Below are positions 15,416 through 21,652 of a DNA stretch of 64,000 bases, piece after piece. Within the stretch, counting starts at the first letter, position 1. Every line of letters starts with the position of its first letter. The notes under the pieces were generated by a model. It worked only from the letters and a program-made list of their open reading frames with translations, made no database searches and was not told the DNA's origin. The translations under genes and the position numbers were made by a program. The DNA is from Conexibacter arvalis (lineage in GTDB: Bacteria; Actinomycetota; Thermoleophilia; Solirubrobacterales; Solirubrobacteraceae): NCBI RefSeq assembly GCF_014199525.1, contig NZ_JACHNU010000003.1:310001-374000 (forward strand), in the 5' to 3' direction.

Positions 15416-15421
15416 AGTCTA
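15416..15421 (-). promoter_or_regulatory. -10 element TAGACT of metF, overlapping the upstream stop codon
   Basis: The first three bases (15421-15419) are the amber stop of the GNAT gene. The hexamer ends nine bases before the metF ATG. Confidence 0.55.
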
Positions 15422-16207
15422 GGACAGCTCGGGCGGCGGATCCCCGCAGAGCCACATCCCGAGCCGCCCCAGCGGCGCGTAGCCAAGTCCCTCGTAGAGG
15501 CGCTGCCCCTCGTAGCTCGACTCCAGCGTCGAGGTCCGCATCCCGCGCTCGCGCGCGTCGAGCAGCGCGGCGTGCAGGAGCCGCCCGGCGAGCCGGCGCC
15601 GCTGCGCGACGGGGTCGGTCGCGACCCACTGGACCATGCAGTTGTCGCCGTCGTCGAAGGTCACGAGGCAGGCGGCCGGACGGCCGTCGAGCTCGGCGAC
15701 GTAGCGGTGGAAGCCGGGCTCGCGCAGGCCGGTGAAGGCGGTGCCGAAGGTGCCGGGCAGCTCGCCGTTGGCGCGCTCGTTGAGCGTCGTGATCTCGACC
15801 GGATGGGGATCGCGGTCGAGCCGGAACGGCGGGCCGTCGCCGGGCGCGCGCAGCGCGTCGAGCTCGAGCGCCATCGCCATCGGCTCGTACTCGAGCAGGT
15901 GGCCGGCGGCCTTCAGCAGCCGCGGCCCCTCCTCGTCGCCGGGCCGCGTCCACACCATCCAGTGCGTGACGCCGGCGTCGCGGTAGACGGCCGCCAGCTC
16001 GCCGAGCGCCTCCTCCAGCGCCGCCAGCTCGTCGTAGATGACGCAGTTGAGGATCGACTGGGTCGGCGCCCCGGGGGCGACGAACGCCGACAGGCCGTCG
16101 AGCTCGACCGCCGCGCCGCCGGGCGCCGCGGGCGCCTCCTTGCGGTAGAAGGCGCGCATCGTCTGGAAGAGGGTGTCGAGCGCCGCGCCGCCGACGGGGG
16201 CGGTCAT
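15419..16207 (-). CDS. GNAT-family acetyltransferase with a divergent N-terminal half
   Basis: 262 residues. Residues 150-262 form a good GNAT domain (FHRYVAELDGRPAACLVTF, then WVATDPVAQRRRLAGRLLHAAL, the acetyl-CoA loop being V-A-x-x-R-R-R-L-A). The first 140 residues resemble a degenerate second GNAT-like unit (AVYRDAGVTHWMVWT, LLKAAGHLLEYEPMAMAL), as in tandem GNAT proteins. Substrate unknown. The start overlaps the MBL gene stop (ATGA), so the two are co-translated. Confidence 0.78.
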   Translation of the reverse strand: MTAPVGGAALDTLFQTMRAFYRKEAPAAPGGAAVELDGLSAFVAPGAPTQSILNCVIYDELAALEEALGELAAVYRDAGVTHWMVWTRPGDEEGPRLLKAAGHLLEYEPMAMALELDALRAPGDGPPFRLDRDPHPVEITTLNERANGELPGTFGTAFTGLREPGFHRYVAELDGRPAACLVTFDDGDNCMVQWVATDPVAQRRRLAGRLLHAALLDARERGMRTSTLESSYEGQRLYEGLGYAPLGRLGMWLCGDPPPELS

Positions 16208-17202
16208 ACCGCGACCCAACGCTCGGGATCGCCGGGCTCGCGCCGGGCCGCCCCGATCGCCTCCAGGTGGCGCAGGTAGCAGAGCGTCTCCGACAGCAGC
16301 CACGCCGCGGCGTGGAGCGAGTCCTCCCCGTGGATGTAGGGGACGACCTCGTAGGCCGTCAGCGGCGCGCCCTCGATCGCGACCGCCGCGGCGGCGACGC
16401 GCTGGGCGACCAGCTCGCGGTTGGCCTCGATGTGCGCCTCGACGTCGGTGAAGGGCCGGGCGTGGCCGGCGAGGCAGAGGCGGGGCAGCGGGTCGAGCGC
16501 CTCGATCGCGTCGAGCGAGCGCAGGAACTCGCCGACCGGGTCGGGCGTCCAGCCGTAGTCGAAGTAGAGCGAGATGCGGCCGAGCAGGTGGTCGCCGGAG
16601 ATCAGGATGCGGCGCTCGGGCTGAAAGAGGCAGACGTGCGAGGGGGCGTGACCCGGGGTCTCGATCACGCGCCAGAAGCCGAGGTCGGTCTCTATCTCGA
16701 TCCCCGGCAGCAGCGCCAGGTCGGGAGCGACCACGCGTGCGATGCCCGGCTTCTGCTCCTTCGCGATCTCGGCGTAGCGGCGCAGCACCAGCTCCGGCAC
16801 GCCGCTGGTGCGGCCGATCTCCAGCCGCCGCTGGAAGGCCTGCTCGGGATCCTCGAACGAGCGCGTCGCGTGCTCGTAGCTGGGATGCATCCACAGCTCG
16901 CAGCCGGTGCGGTCGACGATCGTCGCCGCCTGCCCGTAGTGGTCGATGTGGGCGTGGGTGCAGACGAGCAGCCGCACGTCCTCGATCGCCAGGCCGACCA
17001 TCGACATCGCCCGCTCGAGCTGCTCGATCGAGCCCTCCTCGTGCATGCCGCAGTCGACCAGCACGATCCCGTCGCCGGCTCTGATCGCCCAGGCGTTGCA
17101 ATGCGGCACGCCGGGCCATGGCAGGGGCAGGCGCAGGCGCCACAGCCCCGCCAGCACGCGCTCGCCGCGACCCAGCTCCCGCTTGCGCACCGGTTCGGAC
17201 AT
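16204..17202 (-). CDS. Metallo-beta-lactamase-fold hydrolase
   Basis: 332 residues. Zinc ligands: the family motif is TCTHAHIDHYGQ in variant form (CTHAHIDHYG, H-x-H-x-D-H), then the third His in PGHAPSHVCLF, Asp in ISGDHLLG and the C-terminal CLAGHARPFTD. The C-terminal 80 residues hold a winged-helix-like tail (LCYLRHLEAIG), as in the LACTB2/glyoxalase-II-like group. Likely a thioester or phosphodiester hydrolase; substrate not determinable. TATGGT (minus strand 17217-17212) ends nine bases before the ATG. Head of the MBL-GNAT pair. Confidence 0.85.
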   Translation of the reverse strand: MSEPVRKRELGRGERVLAGLWRLRLPLPWPGVPHCNAWAIRAGDGIVLVDCGMHEEGSIEQLERAMSMVGLAIEDVRLLVCTHAHIDHYGQAATIVDRTGCELWMHPSYEHATRSFEDPEQAFQRRLEIGRTSGVPELVLRRYAEIAKEQKPGIARVVAPDLALLPGIEIETDLGFWRVIETPGHAPSHVCLFQPERRILISGDHLLGRISLYFDYGWTPDPVGEFLRSLDAIEALDPLPRLCLAGHARPFTDVEAHIEANRELVAQRVAAAAVAIEGAPLTAYEVVPYIHGEDSLHAAAWLLSETLCYLRHLEAIGAARREPGDPERWVAV

Positions 17203-17222
17203 GCTCGGCCCACCATATAGGC

Positions 17223-17276
17223 GAGCGGGGCGGTCGCGTGGCGCGAGGCATGCGCGCGCCGACGCGCCACCCGCTC
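17223..17276 (-). terminator. Compound hairpin after the PucR-type gene
   Basis: Outer arms GAGCGG/CCGCTC (17223-17228, 17271-17276) enclose an 8-bp stem GTGGCGCG/CGCGCCAC (17238-17245, 17263-17270). It starts at the regulator's stop codon and lies just before the promoter of the MBL gene. Confidence 0.4.
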
Positions 17277-18576
17277 AGCCGGGCGGCGACGGCAGCGCCG
17301 CGACGCCGTCGGCGCGCCGACGCTCCAGATGCCGGCGCAGCCGCAGCGCCGTCTCCAGCTCGGCGCGCCGCGACGCGACCGGGCTGCCGGTCGCCTGCTC
17401 GACCGCGCGCAGGCGGTTGACGACCGTCTGCTCGTGGACGCCGAGGGCGCGGGCGGTCGCCGCGGCGTTGTGGCCCGTCGCGAACCACGCGGCGAGCGTC
17501 TCGCGCAGCACGACGGCCCGGCCGCCGGGCCGGCCGTCGTCGAGCGCGCCCAGCTCGGCGGCGACGAAGCGGCGGGCGGCGGCCTCGTCGGCGCTCGCCA
17601 GCAGCTCGAGCGCGACGTCGGCGTAGCGCGTCACCGGCTCGTCGCGGCGGACCGCGGCGCGGTGCGCGTCGCGCGCCTCGCGGTGGGAGCCGCGGAAGCC
17701 CTCGCGGCCCGGCTGCTCGCCGCCGAGCGCGACGCGGGTGCCGGGCGGCGGCCGCCACGCGGCGAGCCGCTCGCGTGCGAGCGCGCGGTCGAGCGGTCGC
17801 GGCCCGCTCAGCCACGCCCACCACGTCCCCTCCGCCTGCTCGACCAGCAGCGGCGCGCGGTCGAGCTCGCGCGCGAGCGCCGTGACGGCTGCCGCGGCGT
17901 CGTCGCCCCACGCGACGAGCGCGAGGTGGTGGTGGCCGTCGAGCTCGTGGCCGAGGCCGCCGGCGTCGGCCTGCGGGTCGGCGAGCAGCGCCTGCACGAT
18001 CTCGGCCCGCCGCTGCCGCTCGCCGCGGCGGGCGTTCTCGCGCTCGTCGCGGTAGGCGACGATCATCAGCTTCGAGAGGCAGCCGGCGTAGGAGCTGAAG
18101 AAGCGCGAGCCGGCCCGCAGCAGCGCCAGCCGCTGGTCGCGCGCGGGGTCGAGCCGCTCGACCTCCTCCATCCAGGCGTCGAGCAGCAGCGCCGAGCCGG
18201 TCCGATAGGTCGTGATCAGCGGGCCCAGCGGCGCGGCGACGCTGACGGCCAGCCGCGCCAGCTCGCGATCCCACGGCGGGCAGGTCTGCGGCAGCGGGTC
18301 GCCGGCCCGCAGCGTCTCCAGCTGGTCGCGCAGGCTGCCGCGTGCGATCGCCTCCTCCGGCTCGCGCAGGTCGGGCCGCTCGACCGTCCACTCGGGCAGC
18401 TCGCGCGCGAGCGCGGCGAGCTGGCGCGCCGTCAGCTCCTCGAGCCGGCCGGCGAGCGCGAGCGCCGCCGCGCGCCCGCCGGGCAGGGCGTGGACGCGCG
18501 CGGCGGCGTCGGGGTGGACGGGGCCGGGCGCATGCGCGGGATCGTGCTCGTCGAACTGGAACATCGGGGCTTCCAC
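17275..18576 (-). CDS. PucR/CdaR-type helix-turn-helix transcriptional regulator
   Basis: 433 residues. The C-terminal HTH (about 375-425) reads AWFATGHNAAATARALGVHEQ then TVVNRLRAVEQATG, the PucR C-terminal signature. The N-terminal two thirds is a sensor-like region with a GGDEF-related fold position (LALVAWGDDAAAAVTALARELD) but no ligand motif I can name. I place the start at GTG 18576 because TAGCGT (minus strand 18587-18582) ends five bases upstream; ATG 18564 is the alternative. It is divergent from the secreted Calx-beta/OmpA gene, which may be a target. Confidence 0.8.
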   Translation of the reverse strand: MEAPMFQFDEHDPAHAPGPVHPDAAARVHALPGGRAAALALAGRLEELTARQLAALARELPEWTVERPDLREPEEAIARGSLRDQLETLRAGDPLPQTCPPWDRELARLAVSVAAPLGPLITTYRTGSALLLDAWMEEVERLDPARDQRLALLRAGSRFFSSYAGCLSKLMIVAYRDERENARRGERQRRAEIVQALLADPQADAGGLGHELDGHHHLALVAWGDDAAAAVTALARELDRAPLLVEQAEGTWWAWLSGPRPLDRALARERLAAWRPPPGTRVALGGEQPGREGFRGSHREARDAHRAAVRRDEPVTRYADVALELLASADEAAARRFVAAELGALDDGRPGGRAVVLRETLAAWFATGHNAAATARALGVHEQTVVNRLRAVEQATGSPVASRRAELETALRLRRHLERRRADGVAALPSPPG

Positions 18577-18625
18577 GAAGCACGCTAGCGCCGATGCATG
18601 GATTCCACGATGGCGCGTCGGCGCC

Positions 18626-20368
18626 ATGGCGGTCATGGTGCGCCGCCTCATGCGTTCCCGCCTGCGCCTGCTCCCCACGCTCCCGCTCGCCGTCCTGCTC
18701 TGCGCCGTCGCCGCCTCCACCGCGCGCGCCGGCTTCTCCGACGGCAGCATCCCGGACGCGATCGCCGCCTGCCAGGGCGGGCCGTACGACATCGTGGAAC
18801 GCGACGGCGACCTCTACGTCGCCTGCCATGGCCCGACGCTCGACTGGATGCGCTTCTCCGCCGCGGTCGAGGTCGACGGGGCCCTCGCCCGCATCACGGT
18901 CAGACGGACCGACGCCGGCAGCGGACGCCGCGCGCTGCTGCGGTGGAGCACCGTCGACGGGACGGCGCAGGCCGGGCGCGACTACACGGCGGTGTACAAC
19001 GAGCCGCTCTACTTCGACGACCTCGAGACCACCCGGACGATCACCGTCCCGCTGCTCGACGATCCGGCGGCGACCGCACCGCGCAGCTTCTCGGTCGCCT
19101 TCTCCGAAGGCGCCAGTCAGAACCTGGTCGCCCCGGGGACGCAGACGGTGACGCTGCCGTTCGCGACGCCGGCCGGGCCGGCGCCGTCGGTCGCCGGCCG
19201 CGCCCGCGCCGGCGAGACGCTGATCGCGACCGCCGGGCCGTGGTCGCCCGACGCCGACGCGGTCGCATGGCAGTGGGAGCGCTGCGACGCCGGGAGCGGA
19301 TGCGCCCCGATCGACGGCGCGACCGCGGCGACCGTGACGCTCGGCGCCGACGACGTCGGCCGGCGGCTGCGGGCGACCGCGACGGCGACCAACGCCGCCG
19401 GGACGACGACGCTCCGTTCGGCGCCGACCGAGATCGTGCGACCGGCGCTGTCCGCGCCGTCGCTGAGCGGCCCGCCGGCGACGACGAGAGCCCGCACCGC
19501 GACGTTCACGTTCGCGGGCGAGGCCGATGCGACCTTCGACTGCCGCCTCGACGACGGCGCCTGGTCGGCCTGTGTCTCGCCCCGCACCTACGCCGGGCTC
19601 GACGTCGGCCCGCACGTGCTGTCGGTCCGCCAGCGGGCCGCCGACGGCGCGCTCTCGCCGACCGCGGAGCACCGCTGGGAGGTGCTGGACGACCGGCCGG
19701 AGGAGCCGGGGCCGGGCGGGCCTGGGCCCGGGGAGCCGGGACCGGGCGAGCCGGGGCCGGTCGAACCTGGACCGGGCGAACCCGGGCCGGGGCAGCCGGG
19801 GCCCGGGGAACCGGGGCCGGGGCAGCCCGGGCCGGGCGAGCCGGGGCCGGGGCATCCGGGGCCGGGGCATCCGGGGCCGGGCGAGCCGGGACCGGGGCAG
19901 CCCGGGCCGGGCGAGCCCGCGACGGGACAGCCGGGACCGAACGTGCCGGGGCCGGGCGGCGCGGTGTCAAGACCGCGGCCGAGCGCGCCCGGCAGAGCGG
20001 CGCCGAGACGGCCGCGCGCCAGACGGGTCGTCACGACCGCGACGATCCGCTTCTGCGCCGGCTGCACGACGCCGTCGGCACGCGACCGCGCGCGGTTGCA
20101 GCGGCTGCGCGGGCAGGTCCGCGGCGCCCGGCTGCTGCGCGTCGTCGGCCACGCCGACAGCTCGGGCGACCGGCGCATCAACCGCCGCCTCGCCGAGCGC
20201 CGCGCCCGCGTCGTCGCGCGCCTCCTGCTCCCCGGCCGCGGCGCGGCGCGGCCGCGACGGGTCGAGGTCCGCAACGCCGGCGTCTCGCGGCCGGCCGCCT
20301 CCAACGACACGCTCGCGGGCCGTGCGCTCAACCGCCGAGTGACGATCCGGATCGTCACGACCGGATAG
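18626..20368 (+). CDS. Secreted Calx-beta / OmpA-domain protein with Pro-Gly pentapeptide linker
   Basis: 580 residues. Signal peptide 1-35 (LPLAVLLCAVAASTARA). Residues 80-178 are a Calx-beta-type module (RWSTVDGTAQAGRDYTAV, then TITVPLLDD). Residues 185-270 are an Ig-like module with AVAWQWERCD and DVGRRLRATATATNAAG. A further Cys-containing beta module (FDCRLDDGAWSACVSPRTY, 290-345) follows, then 17 PGPGx pentapeptides (361-445). The C terminus (about 470-580) is an OmpA-like peptidoglycan-binding domain: IRFCAGCTTPSARDRARL, VVGHADSSGDRRINRRLAERR, and NRRVTIRIV at the end. It probably sits outside the membrane, anchored to peptidoglycan by the OmpA domain and displaying the adhesive modules. 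The start is uncertain (ATG 18626 or 18650). Confidence 0.78.
   Translation: MAVMVRRLMRSRLRLLPTLPLAVLLCAVAASTARAGFSDGSIPDAIAACQGGPYDIVERDGDLYVACHGPTLDWMRFSAAVEVDGALARITVRRTDAGSGRRALLRWSTVDGTAQAGRDYTAVYNEPLYFDDLETTRTITVPLLDDPAATAPRSFSVAFSEGASQNLVAPGTQTVTLPFATPAGPAPSVAGRARAGETLIATAGPWSPDADAVAWQWERCDAGSGCAPIDGATAATVTLGADDVGRRLRATATATNAAGTTTLRSAPTEIVRPALSAPSLSGPPATTRARTATFTFAGEADATFDCRLDDGAWSACVSPRTYAGLDVGPHVLSVRQRAADGALSPTAEHRWEVLDDRPEEPGPGGPGPGEPGPGEPGPVEPGPGEPGPGQPGPGEPGPGQPGPGEPGPGHPGPGHPGPGEPGPGQPGPGEPATGQPGPNVPGPGGAVSRPRPSAPGRAAPRRPRARRVVTTATIRFCAGCTTPSARDRARLQRLRGQVRGARLLRVVGHADSSGDRRINRRLAERRARVVARLLLPGRGAARPRRVEVRNAGVSRPAASNDTLAGRALNRRVTIRIVTTG
19706..19960 (+). repeat. 15-bp tandem repeat encoding 17 PGPGx pentapeptides
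   Basis: Seventeen consecutive in-frame 15-base units encode P-G-P-G-x, with x mostly E, Q or H. Two late units deviate (PATGQ, PGPNV). Synonymous variation (ggg/ggc, ccg/cct/ccc) is scattered among units, indicating an old array. It forms an extended linker between the adhesive modules and the OmpA domain. Confidence 0.92.
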
Positions 20369-20440: not shown

Positions 20441-21652
20441 ATGGGGTCAGCGAGGAGAGCTGAGGCCGCCGCCGCGACCGAGGCGGTCGCGCGCAGATAC
20501 TTCGCGGCGGTCGCCGCGCGCGACCCCGAGGCGATGGCCGCCTGCTGGCAGCCGGGCGGGATAGACCGCCTCCACGGCCAAGCCGACCTCGTCGCGCCCG
20601 ACGGCGTGCGCGCGTACTTCGGCGAGCTGTTCGCCGCCTTCCCCGACCTCGCGGTCGAGATCCTCTCGACGACCGCCGACGCCGAGCGCTGCGCGGTCCG
20701 GTGGCGGATGACCGCGACCTTCGCCGGGCCCGGCCGCTTCCAGCGGTTCGAGCCCAACGGCGCCCGCGTCAGCTTCGAGGCGGTCGACGTCGTGCGCGTC
20801 GAGGACGGCCTGATCGCCGGCAACGACGCCTACCTCGACGGGATGGACGTCGCCCGCCAGCTCGGCGTGCTGCCGCCGAGGGACTCCGGCCAGGAGCGCG
20901 GGCTCGCCGCGCTCGTCAACGGCCGCACGCGCGTGGCGCGGATGCTCGCGGCAAACGCGCCGGAGCGGATCGCCGACGGCGTCTGGCTCGTGCGCGGCGG
21001 GCTGCCGCGCAAGGTGATGAACGTCTACCTGCTCGAGCACGACGGCGGCGTCGTGATGTTCGACGCCGGCGTCAAGGCGATGACCGACGCGCTCGCCGCG
21101 ACCGGCGCGCGGATGGGCGGGATCAGACGGATCGTGCTCGGCCACTCCCACGCCGACCACCGCGGCGCGGCGGCCGGCCTCGACGCCGAGGTCTTCTGCC
21201 ATCCGCTCGAGCGCGCCGACGCCGAGGGCGACGGCGGCGCCCACTATCTCGACAAGCGCAAGCTCGACGCCCACGGCCGCGTGCTGCTCGGGCGGCTGCT
21301 GCCGATCTGGGACGGCGGGCCGCTGGAGGTCGCCGGCACCGTCGAGGAGGGCGACGAGGTCGCCGGCTTCGAGGTCGTCCACCTGCCCGGCCACGCGCCC
21401 GGGCTGATCGGGCTGTGGCGCGCGTCCGACCGGCTCGCGCTCGTCAGCGACTGCTTCTACACGCTCGACCCGCAGACCGGCGTCCCGGGCGCCCTGCGCG
21501 TGCCGCACGAAGCGTTCAACCACAGCACCGACGACGCGCGCGCGAGCATGCGCAAGCTCGCCGCGCTGCGGCCCGCGACCGCCTGGTGCGGCCACGGCGA
21601 GCCGCTGACCGGCGACGTCGCGGACCAGCTGGAGCGCGCGGCGGCGCAGTAG
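20441..21652 (+). CDS. Fusion of a SnoaL/NTF2-like domain with a metallo-beta-lactamase-fold domain
   Basis: 403 residues. Residues 12-138 form a SnoaL-like cone (YFAAVAARDPEAMAACW, VRAYFGELFAAFPDL, WRMTATFAGPG, VDVVRVEDGLIAGNDAYLD). Residues 160-403 form an MBL hydrolase with HSHADH (235-240), HLPGHAPG, SDCFY and CGHGEPL as zinc ligands. Each half is complete, so this is a genuine domain fusion. SnoaL domains bind polar polycyclic or small organic ligands, which suggests substrate delivery to the hydrolase (inference). The ATG has an AGGAGAG site nine bases upstream. A TAGGCT at 20366, overlapping the previous stop, is the likely -10 with a leader of about 60 bases. Confidence 0.82.
   Translation: MGSARRAEAAAATEAVARRYFAAVAARDPEAMAACWQPGGIDRLHGQADLVAPDGVRAYFGELFAAFPDLAVEILSTTADAERCAVRWRMTATFAGPGRFQRFEPNGARVSFEAVDVVRVEDGLIAGNDAYLDGMDVARQLGVLPPRDSGQERGLAALVNGRTRVARMLAANAPERIADGVWLVRGGLPRKVMNVYLLEHDGGVVMFDAGVKAMTDALAATGARMGGIRRIVLGHSHADHRGAAAGLDAEVFCHPLERADAEGDGGAHYLDKRKLDAHGRVLLGRLLPIWDGGPLEVAGTVEEGDEVAGFEVVHLPGHAPGLIGLWRASDRLALVSDCFYTLDPQTGVPGALRVPHEAFNHSTDDARASMRKLAALRPATAWCGHGEPLTGDVADQLERAAAQ

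What the first reader, a model, noticed from the sequence alone, without database searches (positions are those of the whole stretch)
18626..20368. Surface protein: Calx-beta and Ig-like modules linked to an OmpA domain through a PGPGx array in an actinobacterium
OmpA domains anchor proteins to peptidoglycan mostly in diderms. Here one ends a secreted protein with a 17-unit Pro-Gly linker, resembling the wall-spanning spacers of surface adhesins. The divergent PucR-type regulator could control it.
Basis: partly seen in the sequence, partly recalled or inferred. Interest (0 to 1): 0.5.

Follow-up and report, generated by a model that had tools for sequence, protein, structure and literature searches.

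The report
OmpA-anchored surface protein in Gram-positive Conexibacter
A soil bacterium without an outer membrane seems to pin a modular surface protein to its cell wall with a clamp domain best known from Gram-negative bacteria, joined to the exposed part by a long proline-glycine spacer.

Summary
ORF 18626-20368 (+) encodes 580 aa: signal-like N-terminus, Calx-beta (Pfam 3e-13), two Ig-like modules, 17 PGPGx units (14 exact) and a C-terminal OmpA domain (3.5e-8). AlphaFold2 folds the OmpA domain at mean pLDDT 89.6; top PDB matches include OprF and Acinetobacter OmpA with stem peptide. Both diaminopimelate-binding residues are present. A sister genome has C. woesei's published length; that order is Gram-positive with meso-diaminopimelate walls. 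The host genome gives no Omp85 hit and two sortase hits. The protein is one of 22 non-MotB, OmpA-ended proteins read in 14 genomes of the order, with varied front ends. 18 of the 22 have an unannotated domain before OmpA; this one lacks it. Best reading: an adhesin-like rod held non-covalently in the wall by OmpA. The anchor is well supported by sequence and predicted fold; binding and adhesion are inferred. Control by the divergent PucR-type gene is unsupported. New variant of a known kind; moderate interest.

The parts
18626..18730 (+). Signal-peptide-like N-terminus, residues 1-35, cleavage-type site ARA|G
   Evidence: Read by eye from the translation; net +6; no signal-peptide predictor was run
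18731..18868 (+). N-terminal segment, residues 36-81, with the stretch GGPYDIVERDGDLYVACHG
   Evidence: Aligned with GGLYDIVVRDGERIVRCLG of the C. woesei homologue L092, BLASTP
18869..19153 (+). Calx-beta domain, residues 82-176
   Evidence: PF03160 E 3e-13; phmmer to the Na/Ca exchanger chain 3us9_A, E 1.8e-6
19154..19444 (+). Ig-like module 1, residues 177-273 (AWQWERCD...CAPIDGAT...DVGRRLRA)
   Evidence: Matched in relatives; no Pfam hit at E<=1; boundaries by eye
19445..19693 (+). Ig-like module 2, residues 274-356 (TFDCRLDDGAWSACVSPRTY)
   Evidence: Matched in relatives; beta-strands at block pLDDT 73-95 in a single-sequence model; no Pfam hit
19706..19960 (+). PGPGx array, 17 units of 15 bp, residues 361-445
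   Evidence: TRF; unit table; shuffle control
19961..20023 (+). Arg/Pro-rich neck, residues 446-466
   Evidence: Residues 446-475 carry net +9
20024..20365 (+). OmpA-like peptidoglycan-binding domain, residues 467-580
   Evidence: PF00691; AF2 mean pLDDT 89.6; Foldseek to 5u1h, 3td3, 3td5
20054..20065 (+). CAGC motif, residues 477-480, after the first strand of the OmpA domain
   Evidence: Cys pair shared only with L083 among the 23 C-termini aligned
20156..20158 (+). D511, likely counterpart of A. baumannii OmpA Asp271 (diaminopimelate binding)
   Evidence: Invariant in A1; Asp in 18 of 23 C-termini; role from a PMC5974059 passage; equivalence inferred from motif and spacing
20201..20203 (+). 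R526, likely counterpart of Arg286
   Evidence: Invariant in A1; Arg in 23 of 23 C-termini
17275..18564 (-). Divergent PucR-type transcriptional regulator (neighbour only; no shown link)
   Evidence: PF13556 and PF17853; NCBIfam Rv1453-family model 85 bits, below its cut-off of 600
18565..18625 (.). Divergent intergenic region, 61 bp, with imperfect inverted repeats
   Evidence: the repeat finder; short GC-rich repeats, no shuffle control

Best explanation
The gene encodes a wall-anchored surface rod. The signal peptide exports it and is cleaved at ARA|G (inferred). The C-terminal OmpA domain sits in the meso-diaminopimelate peptidoglycan and grips stem peptides with D511 and R526 (fold and residues shown by prediction and alignment; binding inferred). 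Its strong positive charge (+20 over the last 105 residues) may add affinity for acidic wall polymers (inferred). The acidic 85-residue PGPGx array is an extended flexible spacer; at roughly 0.3 nm per residue it could reach about 25 nm, the order of a Gram-positive wall (recalled figures). It carries the Calx-beta and two Ig-like modules to the surface, where they most likely serve cell-cell or cell-surface contact, perhaps calcium-dependent (inferred). Anchoring would be non-covalent and sortase-independent.
For: OmpA fold: mean pLDDT 89.6; Foldseek hits 5u1h, 3td3, 3td4, 3td5 at query TM 0.76-0.81; sequence hits to YfiB, OprF, Omp38 and Rv0899 chains. Binding residues present (role from a PMC5974059 passage). 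Wall chemistry: G003 contig C1 is 6,359,369 bp, the published C. woesei size; the same paper gives Gram-positive, A1-gamma, and meso-diaminopimelate for all Solirubrobacterales (PMC3035278 abstract and passages). No Omp85 in the own genome, while the same search rings in 7 of 14 control genomes. OmpA-ended relatives have adhesin-like front ends: CshA repeats in L087, FN3 in L084, RCC1 in L085, L083 and L091, a weak L-type lectin match in L086 (23 bits, cut-off 78). The C. woesei homologue L092 keeps the front (33% over residues 44-353) and a Pro-rich linker but has another C-terminus without an OmpA hit, so the anchor looks like a swappable module. Basic anchor, negative body: last 105 residues +7 to +20 in the first 10 surface proteins against +2 in own MotB; body negative in 9 of 10.
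Against: No binding, localisation or cleavage data. No recognised adhesive domain. The Ig modules rest on recurrence and a low-confidence model (mean pLDDT 63.4). No close orthologue in 20 relatives (best 39%), so selection on this exact protein cannot be tested. The Asp is Ala or Glu in 5 of 23 related C-termini, so stem-peptide binding is not a property of the whole set. The charge pattern is not universal: L157 is only +3, like the MotB L160 (+3), and high Arg may partly reflect the GC-rich genome. NCBIfam OmpA-type models match but all below their cut-offs. C. woesei aggregation is ascribed to flagella in PMC3035278.
Confidence: 0.62

Rival explanations
1. Internal tether: the N-terminal hydrophobic segment is not cleaved and stays in the membrane, so the protein links membrane to wall, as MotB or Pal-like proteins do, with nothing exposed.
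For: An OmpA domain in this genome also serves MotB (L001); several start codons make the N-terminus uncertain.
Against: Consensus-like ARA|G site, no MotB plug motif, no lipobox (recalled motifs, read by eye). Relatives reach 700-1400 aa with CshA, FN3 and RCC1 modules typical of exposed proteins.
Confidence: 0.15
2. Released or matrix protein: the OmpA domain binds weakly or binds other ligands, and the protein acts in the extracellular matrix or as a soluble Ca-binding factor.
For: First-strand loop is unusual (CAGC) and Pfam matches only profile positions 30-98. Related C-termini have lost the Asp (5 of 23). Strong positive charge could bind polyanions instead.
Against: This copy keeps both Asp and Arg and a complete predicted fold.
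Confidence: 0.18
3. The Pro-Gly array is a by-product of slippage in GC-rich DNA and has no spacer role.
For: Tandem 15-bp units, 75% matching without indels, in 86% GC DNA. I saw no PGPGx array in the nine comparison proteins printed, and three of those nine (L081, L087, L088) have no Pro-rich stretch to speak of (at most 6-8 Pro in 40 aa).
Against: Variation falls mostly at synonymous sites. Six of the nine other proteins first compared hold Pro-rich stretches (10-20 Pro in 40 aa) starting 174-324 residues from the C-terminus, of unrelated sequence.
Confidence: 0.12

Closest known systems
Gram-negative fibrillar adhesins with OmpA-like anchors (e.g. Acinetobacter B9T28_05395; PMC10952558 and PMC12617251, passages)
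   Same: Modular beta-domain stalk and an OmpA-like anchor
   Different: Those are diderms; PMC10952558 states that in the Gram-positive members of its set (proteins with CshA_NR2-like domains) the anchor is universally a sortase motif. Here a Gram-positive lineage, a Pro-Gly spacer, no recognised tip domain
Mycobacterium tuberculosis Rv0899/ArfA (2lca, 2lbt, 2l26)
   Same: OmpA domain in an actinobacterium, 2lca matched by phmmer at E 3.9e-7
   Different: BON-type domain before OmpA (recalled); no Calx-beta/Ig rod, no Pro-Gly array (recalled)
Flagellar MotB, present in the same genome (L001)
   Same: OmpA-type domain near the C-terminus, same Asp and Arg
   Different: MotB has the N-terminal helix and plug; its domain is near neutral (+2) against +20
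Sortase-anchored wall proteins with Pro-rich wall-spanning regions (recalled)
   Same: Exposed modules plus a Pro-rich spacer next to the wall anchor
   Different: No LPXTG-type C-terminus; non-covalent clamp expected; sortases do exist in the genome
C. woesei Calx-beta/Ig protein L092
   Same: Front end 33% identical over residues 44-353, Pro-rich linker
   Different: A second Calx-beta domain and a different C-terminus with no OmpA hit

Membership tests
OmpA C-terminal-like domain (PF00691) | Sequence profile match over the curated cut-off | tested here: met
   34.1 bits, cut-off 27.2, profile positions 30-98 of 98
OmpA C-terminal-like domain (PF00691) | Fold with alternating strands and helices as in solved members | tested here: met
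   AF2 elements E-H-E-H-E-H-E; Foldseek query TM 0.79-0.81 to the best 3td3/3td4/3td5 chains
OmpA C-terminal-like domain (PF00691) | Asp and Arg that bind diaminopimelate | tested here: met
   D511 and R526; role from PMC5974059; 3td5 itself not aligned residue by residue
OmpA C-terminal-like domain (PF00691) | Binds peptidoglycan | not testable with these tools
   Needs pull-down
Calx-beta (PF03160) | Profile match | tested here: met
   50.3 bits, cut-off 27, positions 19-114 of 119
Calx-beta (PF03160) | Calcium-binding acidic residues | not tested
   -
Fibrillar adhesin | Repeated stalk domains | tested here: inconclusive
   Calx-beta plus two Ig-like modules only; short stalk
Fibrillar adhesin | Recognised adhesive tip domain | tested here: not met
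   No such Pfam hit at E<=1
Fibrillar adhesin | Cell-surface anchor at one end | tested here: met
   C-terminal OmpA; counted as an anchor in PMC10952558 (passage); anchoring itself not shown
Sortase substrate | C-terminal LPXTG-type motif, helix and basic tail | tested here: not met
   Protein ends ...NRRVTIRIVTTG
MotB | N-terminal helix with plug motif before OmpA | tested here: not met
   No plug motif by eye; own MotB is L001
PucR family regulator (divergent gene) | C-terminal HTH_30 and GGDEF-like domain | tested here: met
   PF13556 1.9e-13, PF17853 2.2e-11

The most novel reading that the evidence does not exclude
Solirubrobacterales, Gram-positive bacteria without an outer membrane, run a surface-display system in which many swappable rods (RCC1, FN3, CshA repeats, Ig, Calx-beta) are clamped non-covalently to meso-diaminopimelate peptidoglycan by mostly basic OmpA domains, alongside sortase. 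Most carry an unannotated conserved domain just before the clamp, often with a Pro-rich linker ahead of it; a few Conexibacter members, this one included, drop that domain and rely on the linker alone, of which this PGPGx array is the most regular I saw.
Probability: 0.5. Interest if true: 0.6.

Novelty: new variant of a known kind. Interest (0 to 1): 0.42.

Why it matters
A survey of fibrillar adhesin-like proteins found no known anchor in nearly half of them (PMC8286594, passages); the anchor models in those passages do not include OmpA, and the term PF00691 does not occur in its main text. If OmpA clamps Gram-positive surface proteins, some such proteins gain an explanation, sortase-independent display becomes testable in a cultivable Gram-positive (C. 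woesei), and the domain need not mark an outer membrane.

Tried and rejected
Outer-membrane role: rejected; no Omp85 in the own genome and C. woesei is described as Gram-positive.

Artefactual ORF: rejected; GC3 0.934 in frame and domain hits on this strand. The long minus-strand ORF 15419-19870 over the same DNA I take for an overlapping open frame; it was not scanned for domains as a whole.

PucR-OmpA module: the PucR protein against the 15 loci L080-L094 gave nothing better than E 0.086; in the genus its other hits are 31-47% identical. Unsupported, not disproved.

Viral relatives of the front end: none confirmed among 8 pattern matches. Plasmids: no match. Comparing array length between strains was not possible: no close orthologue was found in 20 relatives.

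A clean split 'domain before OmpA or Pro-rich spacer' was my first reading and is wrong: L080, and several of the twelve later proteins, have both.

The C-terminus of L092 looked to me like the domain before OmpA in relatives; a model of that domain did not match it at E<=1.

Fold search of the front end listed many Ig/FN3 chains (SiiE among them) with whole-model TM about 0.2; used only as a hint.

Full report
What is there. The frame 18626-20368 (+) reads 580 residues without a stop. Pfam finds Calx-beta at 82-176 (E 3e-13) and OmpA at 503-570 (E 3.5e-8), both over their cut-offs. NCBIfam OmpA-type models match too (best for the domain alone: PA1041 family anchor lipoprotein, E 3.3e-17), all of those listed below their cut-offs. 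The N-terminus MAVMVRRLMRSRLRLLPTLPLAVLLCAVAASTARA|G is Sec-like by eye. Between them lie two modules that Pfam does not name at E<=1. The protein has matches in 15 of 20 relatives (16 of 21 genomes with the own one), most listed rows falling over residues of about 160-370; I call the modules Ig-like on that recurrence and on a beta-rich single-sequence model (mean pLDDT 63.4; blocks 73-95 only from model residue 241 to 320).

The array. TRF reports 15 bp x 17.6 copies at 19695-19958, 75% matches, no indels. In frame it is 17 units, 14 of them PGPGx with x = E, Q, H or G, and three degenerate. Codon shuffles never gave two adjacent units (0 of 2000). From the codon table I count 20 synonymous and 4 non-synonymous departures at the four fixed positions. 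Residues 357-445 are acidic (net -9), 446-475 net +9, 476-580 net +20.

The clamp. With 14 aligned relatives (A1; 14 of the 25 loci), AlphaFold2 gives mean pLDDT 89.6 and strands and helices in the OmpA order. Foldseek's first hits are OprF (5u1h), YfiB and A. baumannii OmpA with glycine, diaminopimelate and stem pentapeptide (3td3, 3td4, 3td5). Pfam's match starts at profile position 30; the first strand and helix are nonetheless predicted. There the protein has CAGC, a Cys pair shared only by L083 among 23 C-termini. Asp271 and Arg286 of A. baumannii OmpA bind diaminopimelate (PMC5974059, passage); D511 and R526 lie 15 residues apart, as those two do. I did not align 3td5 residue by residue.

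The organism. G003 contig C1, same genus, is 6,359,369 bp, the published size of C. woesei (PMC3035278 abstract). That paper describes C. woesei as Gram-positive with A1-gamma peptidoglycan and gives meso-diaminopimelic acid for all Solirubrobacterales (passages). The window's genome (99.16% complete) has no Omp85 hit and two sortase hits.

A set, not a single case. OmpA (PF00691) hits: 16 of 61 genomes in the order sample, 7 of 7 in the genus, 43 of 149 in the phylum sample. The order and genus calls list 34 distinct places; a MotB motif by script or eye is in 18, and 16 lack it. Ten of those 16 are multi-module proteins with signal-like N-termini by eye: window, L080, L081, L083, L084, L085, L086, L087, L088, L091, in 6 genomes. 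The other six (L049, L054, L062, L066, L067, L079) are short, cut by a contig end, membrane-type or otherwise different and were left out. Of 29 phylum loci read (L107-L135; not every match row has a locus), 18 carry the MotB motif and 11 do not; the script printed only 60 residues before OmpA, so whether this architecture occurs outside the order was not settled. Two of the 11, L110 and L130, do have Pro-rich stretches there.

From the 58 rows of a second search (33 of 61 family genomes, MotB included) I picked 14 with long frames by hand, leaving some other long frames unread. One is MotB (L160), one has a degenerate domain that Pfam misses (L156, own genome), twelve carry a Pfam OmpA at the C-terminus. 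Of these twelve, the printed first 70 residues show a signal-like stretch in six (L161, L162, L163, L164, L166, L169); in the rest the start was not examined. Five of the twelve (L158, L166, L167, L168, L169) show no Pfam domain other than OmpA at the limits used. Together that is 22 proteins in 14 genomes, a lower bound from a chosen set.

Front ends differ: RCC1 (L085 14 repeats, L083, L091), FN3 (L084), three CshA repeats (L087), a weak L-type lectin match (L086, below cut-off), Big_13 Ig in several, PD40 propeller repeats in L159, L161 and L162. 19 of the 23 C-termini (L156 counted; 18 of 22 without it) have a stretch of roughly 100 residues before OmpA that a model built here from six of them recognises (E 3.3e-9 or better, the six included); Pfam listed no named domain there at the limits used. 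The four without it are the window protein, L083, L084 and L085, all in this genus; each has a Pro-rich stretch (13-20 Pro in 40 aa). Pro-rich stretches are not confined to them: L080 has one as well (16 in 40), and several of the twelve do (10-21 in 40 in L157, L158, L159, L161, L162, L166, L167, L168 and L169, not always near the anchor). The Asp is lost in 5 of 23 and the Arg in none. The last 105 residues are basic, +7 to +20 in the first ten and +3 to +18 in the twelve, against +2 (L001) and +3 (L160) in two MotB proteins.

Swapping. In C. woesei L092 the front matches residues 44-353 at 33% identity and is followed by a Pro-rich linker, but the end is different and has no OmpA hit. So front and anchor seem to be exchanged in evolution.

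How it works. Shown: domain order, OmpA fold by prediction, key residues, published wall chemistry of the order, no Omp85 hit. Inferred: cleavage, wall binding, spacer length, adhesion, calcium. The regulator is divergent by 61 bp with short inverted repeats, but nothing ties it to this gene.

Known or new. OmpA anchors of fibrillar adhesins are described for Gram-negatives (PMC10952558 and PMC12617251, passages); the first says the Gram-positive members of its set universally use sortase motifs. My searches 'OmpA/peptidoglycan/actinobacteria/Solirubrobacter', 'OmpA-like domain/Gram-positive', 'Calx-beta/OmpA', 'Rv0899', 'fibrillar adhesin/OmpA' and 'OmpA domain/Conexibacter/Thermoleophilia' listed, by title and abstract start, no paper on such proteins in this lineage; each list shows only the top hits, and most subscription journals are not held. 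OmpA domains in actinobacteria as such are known (Rv0899 structures).

Noticed in passing
L080, L081, L086-L088, L091, L156-L159, L161-L169 (stretch just before OmpA): An unannotated stretch of roughly 100 residues (VGC...C.V...LNATGR...GG) precedes OmpA in 19 of 23 C-termini; Pfam named nothing there at the limits used.
   Followed up: partly
L085:2132-6232 (own genome, C1): Second OmpA-ended surface protein of the same genome: 14 RCC1_2 repeats, a (DP)n linker, PKD domain, OmpA.
   Followed up: partly
L156:3313-5748 (-) (own genome, C8): MBG_2-bearing protein with a degenerate OmpA-like end in which the binding Asp is replaced by Ala.
   Followed up: no
L166, L168, L169: OmpA domains with GHTARSG in place of GHTDxxG: binding Asp lost in three proteins, Arg kept.
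   Followed up: no
L084:3467-7120: The part before the FN3 repeats looks C-type-lectin-like by eye; Pfam did not list it at E<=0.01.
   Followed up: no
L110 and L130 (same phylum, outside the class): OmpA domains preceded by Pro-rich stretches (PPPAAPPATPNAAPPASPGAPGPGG; EPEPEPEPEPD), so such linkers before OmpA may be wider in the phylum.
   Followed up: no
window 20441-21652 (+): SnoaL-like domain fused to a metallo-beta-lactamase domain, 72 bp after the OmpA gene; a further metallo-beta-lactamase gene lies at 16204-17202 (-).
   Followed up: no
L089 (G069:C1:461622-461906): OmpA domain in the middle of a 523-aa frame, followed by a HEFGHAFGL zinc-protease-like motif; unlike the surface set.
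   Followed up: no
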